Virus record (IMG/VR): IMGVR_UViG_3300025101_000198
Location: 1-23,354 of that record
From: a virus
Strand: one strand, 5' to 3'
Length of the DNA: 23,354 bases
The translations under genes and the position numbers were made by a program. This document shows positions 8,892-23,354 of the stretch, in pieces. Each line of letters starts with the position of its first letter. Positions within the stretch are counted from its first letter, which is position 1. Below the pieces are notes generated by a model, which was not told the DNA's origin, searched no databases, and saw only the letters and a list, made by a program, of their open reading frames with translations.

Positions 8892-9227
8892 TCACTCACT
8901 CCCCAGTTTCGCATTCATTCGCTCAAAGAAGTCGGAGTCACTTGTAGTGCGAACTGACCGCCCCTTAGACGCACCGACGGTGTTCTCACGCTTCAATTGT
9001 TCCATCTGTTCGGCCTCCATCTCCTTATATGCCGACAATGTGAAGTAATCTAAAACGACTCTTTCGGGTGGCAAGTGATCCCATGAAGAAGGGGCACACT
9101 TGAAAAAATGTCCGAGAAAAAAGGTGGGCATGTTGCCAGCAATCACTGGTATTTTGTAATCGTCAATCGGCAGTTCGCCCTCTCCGTCCCATTTCATAAA
9201 CGAACGGACATCATCAAGGGTTATTCC
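8892..9227 (-). CDS. Tail assembly chaperone, T-like extension made by -1 frameshift
   Basis: This frame encodes the downstream half of a G/GT-type tail chaperone, which binds the tape measure protein before tube polymerisation. The first ATG in the frame (9197) has no ribosome binding site, but the frame stays open upstream through the stop of the previous gene to the CCCTTTG heptamer. Slippage there would yield a fusion of about 231 residues: 120 from the G-like gene plus 111 from this frame, beginning GITLDDVRSFMKWDGEGELP. The segment has a Trp/Tyr-containing motif (DHLPPERVVLDYFTLSAYKEME) seen in the short T-like proteins encoded before tape measure genes, then a charged tail. The listed end is the first base read after the slip. 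Independent start at 9197 is the alternative and would make a 101-residue protein. Confidence 0.75.
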   Translation of the reverse strand, partial: GITLDDVRSFMKWDGEGELPIDDYKIPVIAGNMPTFFLGHFFKCAPSSWDHLPPERVVLDYFTLSAYKEMEAEQMEQLKRENTVGASKGRSVRTTSDSDFFERMNAKLGSE

Positions 9228-9586
9228 AAAGGGCCGCTTGCACCGGCCATACCGGCCATCAAATCCTCAAATGAAGGCAATACAGCCTGTATTGCGGCAC
9301 CGACTTCGGGGCGAATGTTCAGCAATTGCTTTGTCGTGAGTGCGGGTTCTGTGCGCTCAATGCAGGTCGTGAGAACGAACTTCCAGTAGCCCCCGAAGTC
9401 AATTTTCGGAGCCATGTTTCCGTCCCCGTCAGCCGACAAGGACACGAACTTCGTCAATGCTTTTTGTCGGTCAACCCAAGAAAGAGGGCGGATCCAAAGG
9501 GTCATTTCCCCGTATGGTGTTTCCACTCTCGTTTCTTCTGCATCTGTGCCTGTGATTAAATCACTCGCTATCGCTTTCTCCGCCAT
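9221..9586 (-). CDS. Tail assembly chaperone, G-like
   Basis: This 121-residue protein (MAEKAIASDLITGTDAEE...) fits the G component of the tail chaperone pair: a small, mixed alpha/beta protein encoded two genes after the tube and just before the tape measure. The segment PYGEMTLWIRPLSWVDRQKA followed by helical stretches is typical of tail assembly chaperones. The ATG at 9586 has an AAGGTGA element five bases upstream; the frame continues to an ATG at 9619 inside the previous gene, but that has no such site. The gene overlaps the end of the SAP-domain gene by 26 bases. Its last codons contain a CCCTTTG slippery heptamer in the correct register for -1 slippage. Confidence 0.8.
   Translation of the reverse strand: MAEKAIASDLITGTDAEETRVETPYGEMTLWIRPLSWVDRQKALTKFVSLSADGDGNMAPKIDFGGYWKFVLTTCIERTEPALTTKQLLNIRPEVGAAIQAVLPSFEDLMAGMAGASGPLE
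9227..9233 (-). promoter_or_regulatory. Programmed -1 ribosomal frameshift site (CCCTTTG)
   Basis: On the coding strand the heptamer reads C CCT TTG in the zero frame, matching the X XXY YYZ rule for simultaneous -1 slippage, and reads CCC TTT in the shifted frame. It sits one sense codon before the zero-frame stop (TAA at 9223-9221). The shifted frame is open from here to 8892. Tail chaperone genes of many long-tailed phages use a frameshift at this place (lambda G/GT), so the sequence and the context agree. I did not identify a clear downstream stimulatory hairpin by eye. Confidence 0.8.
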
Positions 9587-9917
9587 CTGTTTCACCTTCG
9601 GTTGCTGGTTCGGCTTCATCGCTTTCAGTCAAACGAGCAATCAGATCGGCTTTGGTTCCTGCGGTTGACAATTCACGCTGACTACATAAGACCTGTAATT
9701 CAGTCTTATTCATGTCGTCGTATGATGTCGGCTCCGCTGGGGCCAATTCCGGTGTTGCTGGTGTTGCAGGGGCGGGTGAAGCGACAGGAGCGTCAGCATG
9801 AACAACGATTTCTCCACTGGACAGGCCAGCACCTTCAACGATGCTTGTTCCTTCTATTGTCCAATTCAAGTATTCTCGTCGTCCTGCGATGTTCACATAT
9901 CCTGTCAGTCTTACCAT
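9561..9917 (-). CDS. Small SAP-domain protein in the tail gene cluster
   Basis: The 118-residue product has three parts: an N-terminal beta-like segment (MVRLTGYVNIAGRREYLNW), a Pro/Ala-rich linker at about 44-64, and a SAP motif at about 66-96 (SYDDMNKTELQVLCSQ, then RELSTAGTKADLIARL) followed by an acidic tail. SAP motifs are short helix-extended-helix DNA-binding elements; in phage structural clusters related HeH/SAP elements are often found on small proteins of unknown role. The ATG at 9917 is chosen because AAGGGTGA lies five bases before it; an upstream in-frame ATG at 9935 lacks a site. It may be a minor neck or tail protein or bind DNA during assembly. Domain call is firm; role is open. 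Confidence 0.8.
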   Translation of the reverse strand: MVRLTGYVNIAGRREYLNWTIEGTSIVEGAGLSSGEIVVHADAPVASPAPATPATPELAPAEPTSYDDMNKTELQVLCSQRELSTAGTKADLIARLTESDEAEPATEGETDGGESDSE

Positions 9918-9957
9918 TGTTCTCACCCTTCTCATTGTTGTTAATGAACTTTTTCAT

Positions 9958-10200: not shown

Positions 10201-12450
10201 TCACACCACAAAGTATGGAGAAGTTTCGGCCACCTTCAAGTGGCGAACAGCGAACTCCACGGTCGCCGTGACTGGCCCTTTATCATCCGGCACTGGATGT
10301 TCGGCCTTAGTGACTGTATAGTCTTCAAGTGTGATTGTTGCGTTTTGGCGAGTGGCATGTGCGCCGGATTTTGTCAAAGTCAGCGTGCAATCGTTTGAGT
10401 TAATGTGATGCTTGCGTGTTCGCAATTGTTCAAACCAGCGATCATCCTCAACAAGTGCGGAGAACTTGAAAGTGTATTCACGGGCGGCTTCGGTTATTTC
10501 CGAAGCGAACTGTGTTGCGGCTTGTTGAACTTGATCTGCATCAAGGTGCGTTTGACTTGACCCACGAATGTAAAATTGGGCTGTGTTGGTGTTGGCAATT
10601 GACATCTCCACTGTTTTGGCACGAAGCACCGAAGCACCGAAGGCACTGAATTGCATGTGCTGGAATAAATATGGTTTTTCGCCATTCACAGCGATACCCG
10701 ACACTCTTCGCTTAATTTGAGTATTTGCGGTATTCTCAAACATTCGGTGGGGTGTGATGAACTTTGAGGCAGTGTCTTTGAACATGCGTGTGGATTCAAA
10801 AGATCCACTTAGTTTCAATTCCCCTTCGCTGTCAGCGGCAAGGTTCAAATCGCCCATTTTACAACCACTGAAAACACGAAGCAATTGATTGGCTCCCGGT
10901 GTTGAATCCGAAGAACGGAATGATTGCTCAACGGCAAATGTAGGAACATGTGAATAGCCAAAGAAAGTGTGTTCAACACCATATTTGAGTTCACCAGTGG
11001 ATAAAAGCGCAGGGCTTCCTCTTTTATGTTCATTGTCGCTATATGTGTATTGGAGTCTTTCAATGCCACATGAAGTGGCGGTATGATCGAACATGAAAGC
11101 CTCTTCAACATATAATTGTCCAGCGTCTTGGCCGTTGGCGGTTCCGATTGCGATAACACGACGGATTTCGTGCTTGTTGACTGTTGGTGCGGTGACATCA
11201 GCACCGGGAATAACCACCGTGTCTTTGTCATAGATTTGAATGTAGTCGCCGACCGAGAACTTGGCGGCGTTGGTTGCGCCCACATTGACTCTCAAATCAC
11301 CACAGGTGATGTTGCCAGTGAATGAAGCAAGCAATTGGATTGGTGCGTCGGCCTGTTGAGCCTCAACGACCGCATCAGTGTCAATATCAACACAGCCGGA
11401 GAGTGCTTTTGTTGCCGCCGCACCGCCTGTGTAAAAACCGAGCAGGGGCAAACCTGTGGTTCTGTGGAGGACTTTGAACAGGCCAGCCGCCTCCGCTGAT
11501 TCAAAAATCTCATTGAAGTTCTTTCCAGCGGCGTGAATGGTGATGTCCGTTCCAGTGTCGCTCAAAGCCAAAGCACCGATGAGAACATCAGATCCAACAG
11601 TGGCACTCAAGCCAGTGATAGTGGTTCCATTCGTAGCAGTGAGGTCGTTTTCCCGTGTAGCAGTTCCAAAAATCTGTGAACCCAGTTTTTGAGAGCCGAT
11701 ATTGCCTGTTTTGAAATTAAGCGGCAAGGCTGTCAAAATGGTGTTGGCACCAGTGACTTGACTGTATTCTCCCTTGCTTTTTGCAGTGTGCCCGCCGAGA
11801 GCGTATTTCCAATAACGAAGGCTGTGGGCGTTGAGATCAAAAGAACCGCCAGCAAGAGTTTCCTTGCCGGAGGTCAATACATTGACATCACGACCCATAC
11901 CAACGATGTGTTGCTTGCGAACATCTATTTCGGGTTCGGGGAGTGTGAATGAATTGAGAAGACCGATGAATTGGTCGGTCAAGACCCGTTGGTCGTTTTC
12001 ACCCATAGCCGCCTCAAAGGTTGGGACACGGTTGGCGTCTATGATGAAGTAGTCGCCTGTGTTTGCGACTGTTGCGGCTGTTGTTGCCAACGCAGGGGTG
12101 ATGGTGATTGCGTTTCCACTGTTTTGGGTGATGTAGTAGGTGCGCTTGGTCGTAGGATAGTGATCTGCGTTGTAGCGGGTGTTGTTTCCCGATGAATAAA
12201 TCCTAAGCGTTGCGCCTGTGAGCATTCCGTCGGGGACAAGAGCGTGAGGTGCATTCCCAGCGGCGTTTAGACCAACCCAATACATACCTGCACCGAGGCT
12301 AATGGTGGTGCTGTTGCCGGTGGTCGTCGTGTTCCACCCAGCAGTAGCACCAGTCCCCGAAGTGACATCCGTTCCTTGTCCATACAGTCCGGTTTCTTTT
12401 CCGAACGACACTTCAACAATGTCGCCCTTGAATACTTGATTTACAGCCAT
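10201..12450 (-). CDS. Major tail (tube) protein, unusually large
   Basis: The tail tube protein stacks as rings to form the DNA conduit. This 749-residue product has tube-like segments at about 165-225 (SFTLPEPEIDVRKQHIVGMG, then a GSFDLNAHSLRYWKYALGG pattern) and about 485-749 (VFSGCKMGDLNLAADSEGEL, then a strand-rich end with YTFKFSALVEDDRW and TATVEFAVRHLKV), matching the layout of major tail proteins of archaeal and bacterial siphoviruses. Two stretches, about 20-150 and 230-480, seem to be insertions, including a small beta module near 398-452 (FSVGDYIQIYDKD). Usual tube proteins are roughly 150-450 residues, so surface decorations are likely. The ATG is preceded by GAGATGATGA. Position after neck genes and before chaperones supports the call. 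A sheath protein is less likely. Confidence 0.75.
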   Translation of the reverse strand: MAVNQVFKGDIVEVSFGKETGLYGQGTDVTSGTGATAGWNTTTTGNSTTISLGAGMYWVGLNAAGNAPHALVPDGMLTGATLRIYSSGNNTRYNADHYPTTKRTYYITQNSGNAITITPALATTAATVANTGDYFIIDANRVPTFEAAMGENDQRVLTDQFIGLLNSFTLPEPEIDVRKQHIVGMGRDVNVLTSGKETLAGGSFDLNAHSLRYWKYALGGHTAKSKGEYSQVTGANTILTALPLNFKTGNIGSQKLGSQIFGTATRENDLTATNGTTITGLSATVGSDVLIGALALSDTGTDITIHAAGKNFNEIFESAEAAGLFKVLHRTTGLPLLGFYTGGAAATKALSGCVDIDTDAVVEAQQADAPIQLLASFTGNITCGDLRVNVGATNAAKFSVGDYIQIYDKDTVVIPGADVTAPTVNKHEIRRVIAIGTANGQDAGQLYVEEAFMFDHTATSCGIERLQYTYSDNEHKRGSPALLSTGELKYGVEHTFFGYSHVPTFAVEQSFRSSDSTPGANQLLRVFSGCKMGDLNLAADSEGELKLSGSFESTRMFKDTASKFITPHRMFENTANTQIKRRVSGIAVNGEKPYLFQHMQFSAFGASVLRAKTVEMSIANTNTAQFYIRGSSQTHLDADQVQQAATQFASEITEAAREYTFKFSALVEDDRWFEQLRTRKHHINSNDCTLTLTKSGAHATRQNATITLEDYTVTKAEHPVPDDKGPVTATVEFAVRHLKVAETSPYFVV

Positions 12451-17036: not shown

Positions 17037-18203
17037 TCACGATAGGTCACGGATTTTTCCGCTTGCCTTGAAGAAGGATGCGATGAGTTCGCCCATTGTA
17101 TGGAACATTCCCATCTGTCCGAGCCTGTTGATACCGAAAGGATCTCCGGTTTCAATTCCCGATTCGTGATAGAGTGTTGGTTTTGCAGTGGTGAACCACA
17201 GGTAATCTGTGTCCAAGAAGTAAAGGCGAGAAGAACCGCCAGTGCCCTTGTGAACATCCTTTGATGGGATGATTGGGACACCGTTGTAGGTTGCGACCAT
17301 GAATCCACCTTGAATACCGGGGACACCTTTCACGCCGTTGACACCGGGGACAACACGCTTCATCTCAACGAATCGTTGTTGAGGTTGGAGCAATTGCTGA
17401 ATGGTTTCAAGAGTGTCGTAGCCTGTAAGAATGACCTTTGGCTGACCTCCCGCTTCCCAAATCTGTCGGAACATTCCGTCAAGGATGTTGAGAGTCAAAG
17501 CACGGTCAGTTCCGTTGTTTGCACCTGCGTCCACTTGGGCGTCATACCACTGTTGTGATCCAGCCCCAGCACCGTTTCGGGTAAGGTTGTAGATGTTGTG
17601 GTTGGTGATTGCATCAATGTCGCTGAATCCTGTTCCTTCAACGAAAGACGAAGAAGTGATTCGGTCAAGTGATTCAAAGTCGTTGCCAGCAACGGTGTTG
17701 ACATCCTTGAGTAGCATTTGGTTGATGTGTTCTGTGTGATGCTTTGCCATTTCCATTTTGATAACAGCCCTTGCATCGCCCAGTCCATCGTCCTTGTCAG
17801 CCAAGAACATGGCTGTTTCGGACAGGTCAAAGGAGTGTGCAACCGTCTTTGGCTTGGTTGAAACATGCTCAAAGGTCGGCTTGGTGGTTTCCGGTAGGGT
17901 TGCGTTTTCAGCCACACCGCCGCCTTTCGTGAAGTCGGGCTTTGCTGTGGTGACACGCCATCCACTCTTCTCCCACGGTTTCTTTGGGAGGATGGAGAAT
18001 GCGTTGAACTCTTGGTTCAATTGCGACCATACTTTGCGTCCGAAGATCGCTTGGTATGTTCCAGCAGTGCTGGACATCAACGGAGAGTCCGACTTCAAAA
18101 GGTCGGTTCCAGCGTATGCCCATGCGTTTTGTCCTGTTCCGGCTCCGTAATAGAGTCGTTCCATGTCTTCAATTGTGCGAATATATCCTGTGCTTCCACT
18201 CAT
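17037..18203 (-). CDS. Major capsid protein, HK97 fold
   Basis: This 388-residue protein forms the capsid shell. Its pattern fits the HK97 fold: an N-terminal arm (1-55), an extended loop region (about 75-125, KSGWRVTTAKPDFTKGGG and a Lys/Thr-rich strand), the long spine helix (about 140-170, DARAVIKMEMAKHHTEHINQ), a peripheral region containing PKVILTGYDTLETIQQLL (256-272), and an axial part with GGFMVATYNGVPIIPSKDVH (299-318) and LYFLDTDYLWFTTAKPTLYH. Place after a protease-scaffold gene agrees. The ATG follows AGGAGATGA at four bases. The N-terminal arm is short, so there is no large cleavable scaffold domain on the capsid protein itself. Confidence 0.92.
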   Translation of the reverse strand: MSGSTGYIRTIEDMERLYYGAGTGQNAWAYAGTDLLKSDSPLMSSTAGTYQAIFGRKVWSQLNQEFNAFSILPKKPWEKSGWRVTTAKPDFTKGGGVAENATLPETTKPTFEHVSTKPKTVAHSFDLSETAMFLADKDDGLGDARAVIKMEMAKHHTEHINQMLLKDVNTVAGNDFESLDRITSSSFVEGTGFSDIDAITNHNIYNLTRNGAGAGSQQWYDAQVDAGANNGTDRALTLNILDGMFRQIWEAGGQPKVILTGYDTLETIQQLLQPQQRFVEMKRVVPGVNGVKGVPGIQGGFMVATYNGVPIIPSKDVHKGTGGSSRLYFLDTDYLWFTTAKPTLYHESGIETGDPFGINRLGQMGMFHTMGELIASFFKASGKIRDLS

Positions 18204-18219: not shown

Positions 18220-19539
18220 TCAAAGGTTTCCCCCGTGAAGGGCACGCTGTCCGAGTTCTTCAAGCGCACGCCATCCGTCCAATCCATCGCCAAGAGCCAT
18301 GAACTCTTCATGGGTAGGAACACGAATGTCCGACTGTGCCGGAACTGGCACTGCGGATTTCGCTATGGTGGAGGTTTCGTTGCGTAGGGATGCGATTTCT
18401 TGCTTCAACATCTCAATTTGGCCGGAGTAGTCGTTGGCCTTTTGCATGTGGAGGGCTGATTGGGTTTCCGCTTCGTAGCGGTCATGCCATTCTTTCTCAA
18501 CAAGTGCTTTGACCGCTTCTTCATCACGAATTGCGGAGTAAGCGGAGTAGCCACGCTCAAGGGAGGCTGGGGAAAGATCCAATCCGCCTTTGATGACATT
18601 TCGGCCACCGGACGGTGCATTCATTTGCATGTTTGGCACGCCATTTTGCTTAATGACATACTTGTTGGATTTTGCATTTGGGAGTTTTGGTGCTGGTGCG
18701 AGGGTTGCATCTTCACCACTGCCGTAAAGGTCACCTTGACCTCGGTGTCCGAAGCCATGTTCACCATCAACGCCGACCATGTAAGCCTTGCCGAGTCCGA
18801 AGTGATCTCGTAGGCCATCAAGGTTCACGCCTTGTTGGTGTGCGAACTTTTCAAGCGAGTCAATGTAAGCCACTGCCGCTTCTTCTTCTTTCGCCAGTGA
18901 ATCATCAGCGACCGCTGGTTCTTCGTAGGTGTTCGTGTCTTCAATTTGCTTGTTGATTCGGGACAGTGCGTCACGGATCTCGGTCAAGGTTTCTGCTTCG
19001 TTGCTCATTGTATCATCATCCATTTTCAGTAGGGTGTATGTGCTTTCGGGGTTAATACCCTTTTTGCACAAGGTAATCTCATGCAACTCCATATCCGTGA
19101 TTTCACGGTGGGTGCCATGTTCCGGTGTAGTCTTGCTAACACGGAACAACGCTTGGCCCCCAATGGAGAATGCTCGTAGTTCGCCACTGCGAACTTGCTT
19201 TTGGACTTCACGGGCTTTTTCAATGTCGTTGCGGATTTTGCACACGACAAACAGCCCGTGATCATCAACAGTGGATTTCCATACTCGGCCTTCACTGTCG
19301 GTGTAATTTGGGAGAACTTCTCCCACTTGAATACCACTGTGTGCCAATTGCACATTACGGTATGCTGGGTCGGCCATAAAGCCGTTGAATGCTTTCTTGA
19401 GAGCCGACACTGGGATTCTATCTCCCTGTTTGTCAACCATGTCAACGGAGGCGTAGCCAGCAATAACAAGGTCGTTTCCGGCACCGGACTTCAAAATGAA
19501 GTCTGCTCCGGTCGCTGTCCATGTCGCAGTGGTCGCCAT
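18220..19539 (-). CDS. Prohead serine protease fused to scaffold-like region
   Basis: This 439-residue protein matures the prohead. Residues about 22-175 match the caudoviral prohead protease family: DLVIAGYASVDMVDKQGDRI, then NVQLAHSGIQVGEVL with the likely catalytic His67, then GELRAFSIGGQALF with the likely catalytic Ser125, then ITDMELHEITLCKKGINPES, which supplies acidic candidates for the third residue. The rest (about 178-439) is long, acidic and partly helical, with a probable coiled coil near 370-405 (MQKANDYSGQIEMLKQEIAS), and looks like an internal scaffold. HK97-like systems may keep the scaffold on the capsid protein, on a separate protein, or fused to the protease as here. GGTGA lies four bases before the ATG. 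Family call is firm; the exact third catalytic residue is uncertain. Confidence 0.9.
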   Translation of the reverse strand: MATTATWTATGADFILKSGAGNDLVIAGYASVDMVDKQGDRIPVSALKKAFNGFMADPAYRNVQLAHSGIQVGEVLPNYTDSEGRVWKSTVDDHGLFVVCKIRNDIEKAREVQKQVRSGELRAFSIGGQALFRVSKTTPEHGTHREITDMELHEITLCKKGINPESTYTLLKMDDDTMSNEAETLTEIRDALSRINKQIEDTNTYEEPAVADDSLAKEEEAAVAYIDSLEKFAHQQGVNLDGLRDHFGLGKAYMVGVDGEHGFGHRGQGDLYGSGEDATLAPAPKLPNAKSNKYVIKQNGVPNMQMNAPSGGRNVIKGGLDLSPASLERGYSAYSAIRDEEAVKALVEKEWHDRYEAETQSALHMQKANDYSGQIEMLKQEIASLRNETSTIAKSAVPVPAQSDIRVPTHEEFMALGDGLDGWRALEELGQRALHGGNL

Positions 19540-19566: not shown

Positions 19567-22500
19567 TTAAGCCATAGGGGTGGCAGGGGGTTCGGGCGGC
19601 ATCATTTCATCCTCCTTTGAATCCTCCATTGGAACCTTAATTTCTTGCTCGTCTTTGGCTTCTTGCTCCGTTTTTTGCGGGAAACGCAAAGTCGCAGTGT
19701 TGCCTTCAAGGGTCAAATCTCCATCAATTTCTTGACCCTGCCCGTCGGTTGCTTGGATCTTGATGTGCTGTGGCATTCCCTCTAATTCTCCATCATCCGG
19801 TTGCATTGGGTCAAAAAACGGCGTTGCTTCATCGTCAAGTAATTCTGTTGGCCCTCTTGGAGCCGTATAAGCGTCCATCATGCCATTCCAGCCACCACCT
19901 TGAACACTGCCGCTTATCCTTGCTATTGGTGAACTGATGGCTTTTTCTCCCATCATATCGTCGTCAATCGCTTGATTGACAGTCCACTTTCCGTTTTCAG
20001 TCGCTTCTAAACCATATTCGGCACCGAACTGATCGAGCATTTCATCGGTTAAACCTTTGACATTAGCCTTCAATTCGGCTGGTGTCAGTGCTTCGTCACC
20101 GCCCGACAAGTGATGTCTTGCGAAAGTCAATATGCGTTCAACGGGGTTGGCTTTGCCATCTGTGTCTAATAAGGAGGCTTTGAACAGCATTGAAGAGGCT
20201 GTGGGGATGAAAGGAGGATAAGGTGTAATAGTGCTGATTTCATATTTCAGCAGGTGAACACCCACTGGCCCCCACACATCAATTTGCCTTTCAGCGTGAA
20301 TTAACATTGGTCGTGTCCCTTTCTCAAACCCTTGATAGTCAAAACCTTCACCATCCCACTCGCCCTTCACCACCAACGGTGTGGGTTGTCCGGGATATTC
20401 AAGAATCATTTTTCCGTTGCGGATTGAAACCGAAGGGAATGGGCCATACATTTTCTTGACGCCATCTCCGTCCGGTGCGTAGTGAACCCACTTATGGTGT
20501 GCTTCTTTTCCTTTCATAAAGGTGGAGGTGGAGTCCCGAAGCCATAGTTCACCGCCGAGTGCATCCATGTTTGAGCGCAAACCTTCACGGTCGCTGAACT
20601 TACAGTCAGCGGGCATTGGGAATGAAACTCCTTCGTCGGTTTCGTAAAGAGTGCGGAGAATCGTCAGCCTGTCCTCCAATTTCTCCATGTGAATATCGTC
20701 GCCCTTATGCACCAACAGATCGATGGCTCGGAACCTGCCGTCTTTCAAAACACCATCAAAAGTGCAATCTCCTTCTTGTTTGCGTATGCCTTCTTTGACC
20801 TTCTTCGGCAAAGACACATCCCTGCCCTTTCCGTTGCTGGCTTTGATATGACCGCCTTTCTTTTGGATGAATACACGCTTTCCTTCGGGTTTCTTTTGAA
20901 CGACCCAATCACCAGTGAATCCTCTCAAGTCGTCTATTGAACTAAAATCATAAACAGTATGTGCTGGGACAATGACTTTCTCAAACACTCCTGTTGGTTC
21001 ATAATCGTCGGCTTTGAAAATGTCGCCATTTAGAATAGGAGGTGCGCCCATTTCATCAGTGACTTCAAGGGCCGGAATTGAATTGACCTTTGGTTTCAAT
21101 GCGTGATCTGCATGTGTAGGGTGAACCATTCCCACATGGCCTTCATGGACGGTGCGTTGAAGAGTTTCAAACGGCCTGTCCTTTACCTCAAACCGTGTGC
21201 TATTGTTTTCCCTATCCCAATTGAATGCGAGAGTCGCTGGCATTTTATGTCCCCAAGCGTCTTTATCGCCTGTCAAATACACTGGCGGAATTGTAGCATG
21301 TGATTGAGGGTGAATTGGCCCAAGAGGCACTTCTTGAGTGGCAAGTCCTCCCCCTGCAACCATTGGAGCAAAAGTTGTCATATTTTCCAAACCTCCACCT
21401 CTCATCAATTGCATGTTGGCGGCTTTCGCTAATTGTTGAAGGTTGCCACGGGCGAGAGTGTTTCCTTGAATGTCATTTGGATTGGTGCCGTGCAACAATG
21501 CAGGGCCGTGTTCAGCCATCAATTCCATAGCCATTTTTTGCATCATTTGACCGATTAACACATCGCTTTTTTCATAATGGTCGTTATGGAATGTGTGGTA
21601 TTCTTCATCACCGGGGTGTCTTTCCCTTGTAGGGCCAATTCTTGGTTGTCCTTGATCTGTGTGAGAAGAAATGATTCGTCCTAAACCATTTGGGTTTGTT
21701 GCGAAAGCGTAGGATGGGATAATCATGCGCTTGCCCCCGCCTTGTATTTCCGAGGGGTGCAAATGTGCGCCGTTTGACACAGACGACCAAAGAGAACGAC
21801 GGCGTGGGAATGAACGCACATACGGATGATCAGAACCAGCCGCCCATCCCGTTGATACTGCCGAACGGTGTGGGTGCCCAGCCATCATTGGATGATTTGC
21901 TGTCATAGGGAAAAATGATGAACCACTGCTGTGGTATGCGTCTTCACTGTCATTCAAGGGGTGTTGTCGGTCAGCGAGAAACCCAATCATTTCATCACCG
22001 AGCCATCCTTGCATAGCGGCTGGGTATGAATCTCTCAACATTGTTTGAAGGGACTGTGCATCACGCCCAACCCCTCCCCAGTGTTGAAATGGCAACCACC
22101 AATGGTGGTTTGCTGACGGTTCAATCATGTTGTCATTTGGGTCAATCATGTCAGCATTCTTCACCCACGGTGATTTCATGTGATTCAAGCCGGAGGGTAT
22201 GTCCTCCGCTGACACTGGCCCGTGCCTGTCGGATGGCCGTTCCCACCAGCGGGCTATGGGAATAAGACGCTCAAACCAATTGCGCTTGGCCCTATCCCAC
22301 GAAATACCCGCAGAAGCGGTGAAATCATTCATAACTTTGCGGGCATTTGGATCTGTTGGCCCTTCGGTTCCTCCTAATTTTTTGAGAGTGTCCATGAAAG
22401 CCTCTCGTTGGTCGGAGGATTGCCATTCAAGACCAAACAAATATGAAAGCAAACCAAGACGACTGTTGTTTCCACTCCACTGCTCTTTTTTGGCTGAAAT

Positions 22501-23097
22501 ATATTCATCATCGTCAGCATAGGAAAAGCGGTTTTTGCGGTCAGTCATGTAAAGGTCGTGAAGACTTTCAGTAGGTCGGCCAACAATTTCAGCGTATTCT
22601 TTGGGGATAACTCCCATGCGCTCGGCGTCTTTCATTGATTTGATAATTGATTGACCTTCTTCATCCTCTTCAATCAAGTGCAAAAGGTGATCGACAAAAG
22701 CGGGTTCTCCCCATTCGGCTCCATGAAGTAAAGGCATGGTTGGTAATTCGTATGAAAGAGGGTGCCTTTTCCCGAAACGGTTCTTTTCACTCGCCATAGG
22801 CCAGTCTTGGGCGTATGTTTTTGCGAACCTTCGTTGACCTGCGATGTAGTCTTCATAGCCAGCAGGGAGGTTGAGTGTGGTTATTGGCGACGGATTATCC
22901 ATGTTCTCCATGTGATATTGAGGTGGTGCCGTCATAGGGAGCATTCCGAGAATAGCCTGATCTTCTTTTTCAATTGAAGTTTCATCTCCATAGTAGTCGG
23001 AAAAGGCTTTCAAATACAAGTCTTTGTTGACCTCATGGTTTGACACCAACGACAGGAGTGTATCGGTTCGTATTCTCAAGAACTCTTGCCTATTCAT
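19567..23097 (-). CDS. Giant morphogenesis-region protein with ATP-dependent-ligase-like nucleotidyltransferase domain
   Basis: The 1176-residue protein is encoded just before the protease. Residues about 700-960 resemble the covalent nucleotidyltransferase fold of DNA/RNA ligases: GDWVVQKKPEGKRVFI (Lys736-x-Glu-Gly-x-Arg741, motif I), IKASNGKGRDVSL (compare SRNG), DCTFDGVL (motif III region), FRAIDLLVHKGDDI (motif IIIa), KLEDRLTILRTL, GGELWLRDS (motif IV region) and HHKWVHYAP (possible motif V). Motif III lacks the usual Glu after Asp-Gly, and motif IV is irregular, so activity is uncertain. Residues 1-690 show no fold I recognise and are rich in His, Met, Trp and Pro near 330-450. The C terminus (about 1060-1176) is acidic with Pro at the end. 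TGGAGG lies seven bases before the ATG. Place between an upstream, possibly portal, gene and the protease is where minor head proteins carrying extra enzymes are known in phages. Confidence 0.65.
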   Translation of the reverse strand: MNRQEFLRIRTDTLLSLVSNHEVNKDLYLKAFSDYYGDETSIEKEDQAILGMLPMTAPPQYHMENMDNPSPITTLNLPAGYEDYIAGQRRFAKTYAQDWPMASEKNRFGKRHPLSYELPTMPLLHGAEWGEPAFVDHLLHLIEEDEEGQSIIKSMKDAERMGVIPKEYAEIVGRPTESLHDLYMTDRKNRFSYADDDEYISAKKEQWSGNNSRLGLLSYLFGLEWQSSDQREAFMDTLKKLGGTEGPTDPNARKVMNDFTASAGISWDRAKRNWFERLIPIARWWERPSDRHGPVSAEDIPSGLNHMKSPWVKNADMIDPNDNMIEPSANHHWWLPFQHWGGVGRDAQSLQTMLRDSYPAAMQGWLGDEMIGFLADRQHPLNDSEDAYHSSGSSFFPMTANHPMMAGHPHRSAVSTGWAAGSDHPYVRSFPRRRSLWSSVSNGAHLHPSEIQGGGKRMIIPSYAFATNPNGLGRIISSHTDQGQPRIGPTRERHPGDEEYHTFHNDHYEKSDVLIGQMMQKMAMELMAEHGPALLHGTNPNDIQGNTLARGNLQQLAKAANMQLMRGGGLENMTTFAPMVAGGGLATQEVPLGPIHPQSHATIPPVYLTGDKDAWGHKMPATLAFNWDRENNSTRFEVKDRPFETLQRTVHEGHVGMVHPTHADHALKPKVNSIPALEVTDEMGAPPILNGDIFKADDYEPTGVFEKVIVPAHTVYDFSSIDDLRGFTGDWVVQKKPEGKRVFIQKKGGHIKASNGKGRDVSLPKKVKEGIRKQEGDCTFDGVLKDGRFRAIDLLVHKGDDIHMEKLEDRLTILRTLYETDEGVSFPMPADCKFSDREGLRSNMDALGGELWLRDSTSTFMKGKEAHHKWVHYAPDGDGVKKMYGPFPSVSIRNGKMILEYPGQPTPLVVKGEWDGEGFDYQGFEKGTRPMLIHAERQIDVWGPVGVHLLKYEISTITPYPPFIPTASSMLFKASLLDTDGKANPVERILTFARHHLSGGDEALTPAELKANVKGLTDEMLDQFGAEYGLEATENGKWTVNQAIDDDMMGEKAISSPIARISGSVQGGGWNGMMDAYTAPRGPTELLDDEATPFFDPMQPDDGELEGMPQHIKIQATDGQGQEIDGDLTLEGNTATLRFPQKTEQEAKDEQEIKVPMEDSKEDEMMPPEPPATPMA

Positions 23098-23111: not shown

Positions 23112-23354
23112 TTAGAGGTTCTTTGCGACATTTTCCATAAGGGAGGCAATTTCCTCAATGAGTCCGGGATTACCATATCCTTTTCTCAATTGCGTGAGGC
23201 GTTCTTCAATTGGAGCGATGTTCCAATTGCCGTCTTTACGGTCGCCTCCGTCTGTTAAGTGCATGTGAACTGAACTGCCTTTTTCGTCATAACCTGTCTT
23301 GGCAAAGGCTGGCATTTTAGCGACTTCGCTGATTGCGCTTTTTTTCGGCGCAAC
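23112..23354 (-). CDS. 3' end of an unidentified upstream gene (partial, runs off right edge)
   Basis: The frame is open from the right edge to a stop at 23114-23112, giving 80 codons that begin VAPKKSAISEVAKMPAFAKT and end IASLMENVAKNL. The Met at 23315 has no ribosome binding site, so it is probably internal and the gene begins outside the window. The tail is helical (IEERLTQLRKGYGN, GLIEEIASLMENVAK). By place before the protease block it could be the C terminus of a portal or another packaging protein, but nothing here proves it. The stop lies 14 bases before the next ATG. Confidence 0.6.
   Translation of the reverse strand, partial: VAPKKSAISEVAKMPAFAKTGYDEKGSSVHMHLTDGGDRKDGNWNIAPIEERLTQLRKGYGNPGLIEEIASLMENVAKNL

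What the first reader, a model, noticed from the sequence alone, without database searches (positions are those of the whole stretch)
20218..21000. Ligase-type nucleotidyltransferase domain embedded in a giant protein of the virion assembly block
Motif I (KPEGKR at 20875-20892), an NGKGRD segment like the ligase SRNG element, a DG motif III, an IDLLVHKGD motif IIIa and a LEDRLTIL segment occur in the order and spacing of ATP-dependent ligases, inside a 1176-residue protein encoded directly before the prohead protease. Viral ligases are normally stand-alone replication or repair proteins. A ligase-like domain on a probable virion or assembly protein suggests an enzyme packaged with, or acting on, the genome at packaging or entry (nick sealing, end joining, circularisation), or a repurposed fold.
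Basis: partly seen in the sequence, partly recalled or inferred. Interest (0 to 1): 0.78.

Follow-up and report, generated by a model that had tools for sequence, protein, structure and literature searches.

The report
Worn-out ligase fold in virus-assembly protein
Tailed viruses that probably infect abundant ocean archaea carry, in a very large protein encoded among their head-building genes, a domain with the shape of a DNA ligase that has lost the residues a ligase needs, so it is strongly conserved but most likely does a different, non-sealing job during virus assembly or DNA packaging.

Summary
Residues about 700-960 of the 1176-aa protein (window 19567-23097, minus strand) form a ligase-type nucleotidyltransferase fold: AlphaFold pLDDT 85, and the top solved structures are archaeal ATP-dependent DNA ligases (E 6e-10). 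Sequence profiles agree, weakly but above shuffled controls, with K736 in the motif I register. The protein lies between portal and prohead protease, in the order TerL-portal-giant-protease-MCP, conserved in all 36 relatives checked as far as their contigs reach. One relative lies in a Ca. Poseidoniales single-cell genome.

The active-ligase reading is not supported. In 84 distinct relatives the motif I lysine is K in 59, M in 21, R in 2 and V in 2, with at least five changes on the tree. The motif III glutamate is missing in all 84. The motif V lysines are missing, with one exception at one position. All these residues are 35/35 in real ligases. Yet this domain is the most constrained part of the protein (dN/dS 0.01-0.02), with a different invariant residue set.

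Best reading: a domesticated, ligase-inactive fold, probably binding DNA or a nucleotide during head assembly or packaging. Binding and timing are inferred.

The parts
19567..23097 (-). 1176-aa giant protein carrying the ligase-fold domain
   Evidence: ORF; 84 distinct relatives of the domain, nearly all in ORFs of 1050-1200 aa where the contig is complete
21028..23097 (-). N-terminal module, residues 1-690, mostly helical, no recognisable fold
   Evidence: AF2 pLDDT 83.4, pTM 0.85; no PDB match, best E 3.6; no Pfam match of note in 36 members
20479..20982 (-). Nucleotidyltransferase core (residues about 706-873)
   Evidence: AF2 model of residues 688-960; Foldseek to DNA ligases; most conserved part of the protein
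20875..20892 (-). Motif I equivalent KPEGKR, Lys736 at 20890-20892
   Evidence: Aligned with ligase K-x-D-G-x-R; K59/M21/V2/R2 in 84 relatives
20818..20835 (-).
   Evidence: Gap in 24 of 36 relatives
20749..20760 (-). Motif III equivalent FDGV (780-783); catalytic Glu replaced by Val
   Evidence: Position 783 is Y/V/F/T, never E, in 84 relatives; E in 35/35 ligases
20656..20724 (-). Motif IIIa region IDLLVHKGDD...LEDRLTIL (residues 792-814)
   Evidence: Aligned with ligase FDiLylDG.dl...p..eRr.iL; D793, H797, D801, D809, R810 invariant in 84
20476..20550 (-). Motif IV-V equivalent ELWLRDSTSTFMKGKEAHHKWVHYA (residues 850-874); ligase lysines absent, R854 D855 S858 F860 K862 H867 W870 invariant
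   Evidence: Extended hhalign (low confidence in this part), residue counts, ligase control
20326..20436 (-). Beta-rich segment after the core (residues about 888-924), in the position of the ligase OB domain
   Evidence: DSSP strands of the model; OB identity not separately shown
19570..20217 (-). C-terminal region (residues 961-1176), least conserved, ends in an acidic Pro-rich tail
18220..19539 (-). Prohead (head maturation) protease, next gene downstream
   Evidence: PF04586 1e-8, phrog_23555 3e-19
17037..18203 (-). Major capsid protein
   Evidence: phrog_24667 5e-47; 31% identical to Haloarcula virus HVTV-1 MCP
23112..23354 (-). 3' end of the gene before the giant (homologue of the 385-aa ORF in L002)

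Best explanation
The 1176-aa protein is a conserved head-assembly-operon protein of tailed viruses that probably infect Poseidoniales (marine group II archaea). Its middle is a genuine DNA-ligase-type nucleotidyltransferase domain (NTase core plus a beta-rich domain where the OB domain would be) that has been domesticated and no longer seals DNA: the lysine nucleophile is dispensable and the metal- and phosphate-handling residues of motifs III and V are gone. Shown by computation: the fold, the loss of ligase residues, the strong purifying selection, the fixed place between portal and protease. Inferred: that the protein acts in or on the prohead. The step I think most likely is that the domain uses the inherited ligase surface or pocket to hold DNA (or bind a nucleotide) without adenylylation, for example anchoring or guiding packaged DNA near the portal, while the 690-aa N-terminal module makes contacts in the head.
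For: Fold: model pLDDT 85, pTM 0.78; 109 PDB matches at E<=0.001, the top ones archaeal ATP-dependent DNA ligases, then LigIV, LigD, Lig1 and capping enzymes; LigIII NTase alone (10ye_L) TM 0.63 normalised to target; BFVD hits are largely viral DNA ligases. Sequence: PF01068 weak in 26/36 and the snurportin cap-binding family in 4/36; hhalign 36.7 against shuffled maximum 24.3; in a ligase-profile search of ORFs from several virus contigs the top-scoring ORFs are the giant proteins, though only at E 0.02-0.2. Ligase chemistry lost: K736 K59/M21/V2/R2, motif III Glu 0/84, position 872 Lys 1/84, position 874 Lys 0/84, against 35/35 in ligases; at least 5 K/non-K changes on the tree. Functional constraint: NTase core dN/dS 0.010-0.017 against 0.05-0.07 N-terminal and 0.12 C-terminal; conservation 3.07 bits against 2.53 and 2.42. 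Context: TerL-ORF472-portal-(ORF205)-ORF385-giant-protease-MCP in 36/36 loci as far as contigs reach (TerL and portal identified). Host: Poseidoniales single-cell contig.
Against: No direct evidence of presence in virions or of DNA binding. K736 is kept in 59/84 relatives, including the window copy, so a nucleotide-binding or even adenylylating role in that subset is not excluded. Sequence-level similarity to ligases is marginal (no curated cut-off passed).
Confidence: 0.62

Rival explanations
1. An active (possibly minimal or unusual) ligase or nucleotidyltransferase in the Lys736-bearing clades, packaged with or acting on the genome to seal nicks or join ends; the M/R/V clades are secondary losses.
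For: K736 and the K-P-x-G-x-R frame are intact in the window copy and in 59/84 relatives. No stand-alone ligase of PF01068, PF01653 or PF09414 type was found in 25 virus contigs up to 108 kb, so a ligase could be wanted. A profile of real ligases also found none in parts of four contigs near 100 kb.
Against: Motif III Glu absent in 84/84 and both motif V lysines lost apart from one sequence at one position, in K-bearing copies too, while 35/35 in ligases; R at 736 in relatives with 67-69% domain identity; the most constrained residues are others.
Confidence: 0.1
2. A remodelled enzyme: the old NTase pocket carries a new catalytic set built from the invariant D781, D793, H797, D801, R810, R854, D855, K862 and H867, acting on nucleic acid, nucleotide or protein during assembly or after delivery into the host.
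For: These polar residues are invariant in 84/84 and lie in or beside the old motifs; dN/dS 0.01-0.02. Enzymes fused to head proteins or encoded near portal/terminase genes are common in phages (PMC9503650); related haloviruses encode a zeta-toxin giant protein in the same interval.
Against: No active-site geometry examined; several invariant residues (D793, D801, R810, W870) are also ligase structural positions; no family match naming another activity.
Confidence: 0.15
3. A purely structural use: the ligase fold is only a rigid building block of a head, portal or scaffold protein and binds no nucleic acid or nucleotide.
For: Loss of catalytic residues; constant architecture and place in the operon; no detectable enzyme features in the rest of the protein.
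Against: Highest conservation of the whole protein sits in the old pocket motifs rather than on an arbitrary surface.
Confidence: 0.13

Closest known systems
Archaeal ATP-dependent DNA ligases (PF01068; e.g. Thermococcus sibiricus 4eq5, Pyrococcus furiosus 2cfm)
   Same: Fold of the NTase core; motif I frame K-x-x-G-x-R, motif III FDG, motif IIIa and the W of the motif V region in order
   Different: Motif III Glu and motif V Lys missing, motif I Lys not conserved, N-terminal 690 aa with no recognisable fold in place of the ligase DNA-binding domain, encoded in the head operon
Snurportin-type m3G-cap-binding domain (PF21974)
   Same: Weak Pfam match in 4/36 members (best 0.0047); from my own knowledge an NTase-fold domain that binds a ligand without catalysis
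   Different: Match is below cut-off; no cap biology is known in these viruses; cap-binding residues not tested
Head-packaged effectors and polyvalent proteins of phages (MuF, portal or protease fusions; PMC9503650, PMC5512222)
   Same: Enzyme-like domain in a large protein encoded next to portal and protease
   Different: No MuF domain; a ligase-type NTase was not mentioned in the passages I read; domain appears catalytically degenerate and is present in every relative rather than swapped
Druskaviridae (HVTV-1) gp113-gp115, including zeta toxin giant gp115
   Same: Related MCP (31%) and a giant multidomain protein in the same portal-protease interval
   Different: No detectable homology between gp115 and the window protein
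Magrovirales (Aoguangviridae, Apasviridae)
   Same: Host Poseidoniales, tailed, about 100 kb, MCP clade shared with Druskaviridae in the literature (PMC8651126, PMC12999244)
   Different: Published magroviruses are said to encode an ATP-dependent DNA ligase in a replication set (PMC10768690, PMC12999244); none was found here by Pfam, and those genome records were not held, so whether that annotation is this domain or a separate gene could not be checked

Membership tests
ATP-dependent DNA ligase (covalent nucleotidyltransferase) | NTase fold of the ligase/capping superfamily | tested here: met
   AF2 pLDDT 85, Foldseek E 5.6e-10, probability 1.00, hhalign above shuffled controls
ATP-dependent DNA ligase (covalent nucleotidyltransferase) | Motif I lysine nucleophile conserved | tested here: not met
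   K in 59/84, M 21, R 2, V 2; at least 5 changes on the tree. Present in the window copy.
ATP-dependent DNA ligase (covalent nucleotidyltransferase) | Motif III glutamate | tested here: not met
   Y/V/F/T in 84/84; E in 35/35 ligases
ATP-dependent DNA ligase (covalent nucleotidyltransferase) | Motif V lysines (W-x-K-x-K) | tested here: not met
   Position 872 is K in 1/84, position 874 in 0/84; 35/35 in ligases. Register from low-confidence part of alignment.
ATP-dependent DNA ligase (covalent nucleotidyltransferase) | Motif IV glutamate and lysine (EG..xK) | tested here: inconclusive
   Acidic residue at 850 in 76/84, but the Lys position aligns with invariant Asp855; register uncertain
ATP-dependent DNA ligase (covalent nucleotidyltransferase) | C-terminal OB domain | tested here: inconclusive
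   Four strands follow the core and Foldseek alignments span it, but OB topology was not separately verified
ATP-dependent DNA ligase (covalent nucleotidyltransferase) | Adenylylation and nick sealing in vitro | not testable with these tools
   Needs protein
Snurportin-type non-catalytic NTase fold | Ligand pocket without lysine nucleophile | tested here: inconclusive
   Pfam PF21974 weak in 4/36; K736 dispensable; ligand unknown
MuF-linked head-packaged effector / polyvalent protein | MuF or portal domain in the same chain | tested here: not met
   PF04233 found in HVTV-1 but not in nine records of the window family; hhalign with archaeal MuF no match
MuF-linked head-packaged effector / polyvalent protein | Encoded beside portal, terminase and capsid genes | tested here: met
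   36/36 loci as far as contigs reach
MuF-linked head-packaged effector / polyvalent protein | Protein present in virions and delivered to the host | not testable with these tools
   No proteomics available
Magrovirales (viruses of Poseidoniales) | Poseidoniales host | tested here: inconclusive
   One relative on a 106-kb contig of Ca. Poseidoniales single-cell genome AG-422-I20, not shown to be infection
Magrovirales (viruses of Poseidoniales) | Phylogenetic placement with reference magroviruses | not testable with these tools
   OR863078 and ON649702 not held

The most novel reading that the evidence does not exclude
A DNA-ligase fold has been recruited into the head or portal assembly machinery of archaeal tailed viruses and its old active site rebuilt around a new invariant residue set, giving a previously undescribed activity on packaged DNA or on host molecules.
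Probability: 0.15. Interest if true: 0.85.

Novelty: new variant of a known kind. Interest (0 to 1): 0.56.

Why it matters
Several hundred marine virus stretches encode this protein (alone confirmed 387). The viruses probably infect one of the most abundant ocean archaeal groups, and the protein has no name or domain in the general family libraries. Showing that its most conserved part is a ligase-inactive DNA-ligase fold gives it an ancestry, warns against annotating it as a DNA ligase, and makes the role of the portal-protease interval protein directly testable.

Tried and rejected
Direct library searches with the whole protein: nothing in Pfam, PHROGs or NCBIfam; single-sequence and profile search of PDB sequences: nothing credible. 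Search of annotated phages with two family members: no match. PHROG hits in single members (phrog_4938, 15689, 8871) are 28-83 residue matches, not pursued beyond one check. Idea that the N-terminal module hides a MuF domain (an IAR...N motif at 548-561): rejected by PF04233 and hhalign. Idea that gp115 of HVTV-1 is a homologue: rejected. Idea that the domain came from a host ATP ligase: the Poseidoniales cell and its 20 nearest relatives lack PF01068, and the single-cell genome has an NAD-dependent ligase.

Full report
What is there. The window is a 23-kb IMG/VR virus fragment. On the minus strand it carries a tailed-virus head and tail block: a 1176-aa ORF (19567-23097), a prohead protease (Peptidase_S78), a major capsid protein of phrog_24667 type, and a tape measure protein.

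No name by simple search. The whole protein has no Pfam, PHROG or NCBIfam match, and no match in annotated phages. It has relatives in IMG/VR: 25 from the full protein and 387 confirmed stretches from the domain profile (the best 80 were kept). From these and a further scan I took 84 distinct full-length copies of the domain. Where the contig is complete, the domain sits in an ORF of about 1050-1200 aa.

The fold. Taken alone, the domain sequences hit PF01068 (ATP-dependent DNA ligase domain) weakly but repeatedly: 26 of 36 diverse members, best E 7.7e-4. The next credible family is the snurportin m3G-cap-binding domain (4 of 36), which from my own knowledge is another nucleotidyltransferase-fold domain. 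All are below curated cut-offs. I therefore aligned the family profile with 35 real ATP ligases fetched from Thermoplasmatota genomes: score 36.7, P 2.9e-4, against a maximum of 24.3 in 100 column-shuffled controls. The confident part of the alignment places K736 on the motif I lysine, FDGV on motif III FDGE, and DLLVHKGDD...LEDRL on motif IIIa. AlphaFold2 on residues 688-960 with 36 natural relatives gave pLDDT 85 and pTM 0.78. Foldseek returned archaeal ATP-dependent DNA ligases first (4eq5 E 5.6e-10, probability 1.00), then LigIV, LigD, Lig1 and capping enzymes. Global rmsd is about 10 angstrom for most hits, which I take to reflect different inter-domain angles; the isolated LigIII NTase domain (10ye_L) matches at TM 0.63 of its own length, rmsd 4.5. 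The fold is therefore well supported.

The chemistry. In 84 distinct copies the motif I lysine position is K 59, M 21, R 2, V 2. The motif III glutamate position is Y, V, F or T, never E. The two motif V lysine positions are lysine in 1/84 and 0/84. In the 35 real ligases every one of these is 35/35. On a maximum-likelihood tree built without column 736 the K/non-K state changes at least five times, and the two R copies belong to the window's own half of the family (67-69% domain identity). NGKGRD, proposed as an SRNG element, is missing in 24 of 36 relatives. A canonical ligase mechanism is therefore not conserved in this family. The window copy itself keeps K736 but lacks the motif III and V residues.

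Why it is not simply decaying. The NTase core is the most conserved part of the whole protein (3.07 bits per column against 2.53 and 2.42). Against three close relatives its dN/dS is 0.010-0.017, compared with 0.05-0.07 for the N-terminal part and 0.12 for the C-terminal part. A set of polar residues is invariant in 84/84: D781, D793, H797, D801, D809, R810, R854, D855, S858, K862, H867, with P737, G739, F860 and W870. Several coincide with ligase structural positions; H797, R854, D855 and H867 are not ligase consensus residues in my alignment.

Context. In 36 of 36 loci examined the gene order, as far as each contig reaches, is TerL - ORF472 - portal - (ORF205, found in the window's half of the family) - ORF385 - giant - protease - MCP, all on one strand (TerL and portal identified). 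A virion or assembly role is an inference from this. Residues 1-690 give a confident model (pLDDT 83, pTM 0.85) with no PDB match at all (best E 3.6), so the carrier module looks like an undescribed fold. It is not MuF.

Host and kin. One relative lies on a 106-kb contig of the Ca. Poseidoniales single-cell genome AG-422-I20. The MCP is 31% identical to Druskaviridae haloviruses, consistent with the published link between magroviruses and Druskaviridae (PMC8651126). HVTV-1 has a different giant protein, annotated zeta toxin, in the same interval. Pfam searches of 25 virus contigs found no stand-alone ATP-, NAD- or RNA-ligase-family gene; a ligase profile run on parts of four of these contigs and on flanking loci found none either, its best hits being the giant proteins themselves, all weak. 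These contigs may be incomplete. Papers state that magroviruses encode an ATP-dependent DNA ligase (PMC10768690, PMC12999244, PMC10160649). The named genomes were not held, so I could not tell whether that annotation is a separate gene, this domain, or a feature of other groups.

Interpretation. I commit to a domesticated, ligase-inactive NTase domain inside a head-assembly-operon protein, most likely binding DNA or a nucleotide during prohead assembly or packaging. Shown: fold, loss of ligase residues, constraint, fixed context. Inferred: assembly role, ligand, timing. Rivals are an active enzyme in K736-bearing clades (0.10), a rebuilt active site (0.15) and a purely structural block (0.13).

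Novelty. I found no description of a ligase-fold domain in a head-assembly protein in the passages read, but only open-licence papers could be searched. Precedents of the same general kind exist: enzymes fused to or encoded beside head genes (PMC9503650), polyvalent proteins (PMC5512222), and a stand-alone ligase DNA-binding domain in jumbo phages (PMC7824862). I therefore call it a new variant of a known kind.

Noticed in passing
window 21028-23097 (residues 1-690 of the giant protein): Confident AF2 model (pTM 0.85) without any PDB fold match: a candidate new fold shared by a large set of marine archaeal virus contigs.
   Followed up: partly
L170:6560-10501 (HVTV-1 gp115): Giant protein annotated zeta toxin in the same portal-protease interval; by eye its C-terminus also looks like an ADP-ribosyltransferase (VYRGL...GGFQSTS), untested.
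   Followed up: no
BFVD A0A516LT18 (827 aa): Unnamed viral protein is by far the closest structural match (E 4.8e-17, 18% identity) to the domain; identity and neighbours could not be read.
   Followed up: no
L102 (CACGHY010000002.1, 106 kb): A Poseidoniales single-cell genome contig carries the whole TerL-to-MCP block: possibly a virus caught in an infected cell.
   Followed up: partly
25 virus contigs of this family: PolB (PF00136) is found in 7 virus contigs, all from the window's half of the family (and in the single-cell genome), suggesting two replication strategies under one head module.
   Followed up: partly
window 8892-9935, minus strand: Upstream of the tape measure gene, ORF 9221-9619 seems to continue by a +1 or -2 shift into ORF 8892-9197 (sequence near GGCCCTTTGGAATAACC): candidate tail assembly chaperone frameshift.
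   Followed up: no
window 10201-12450, minus strand: 749-aa protein with a weak match to the K1-lyase Rider domain (PF24149, E 4.9e-5, below cut-off): possible tail spike or fibre.
   Followed up: no
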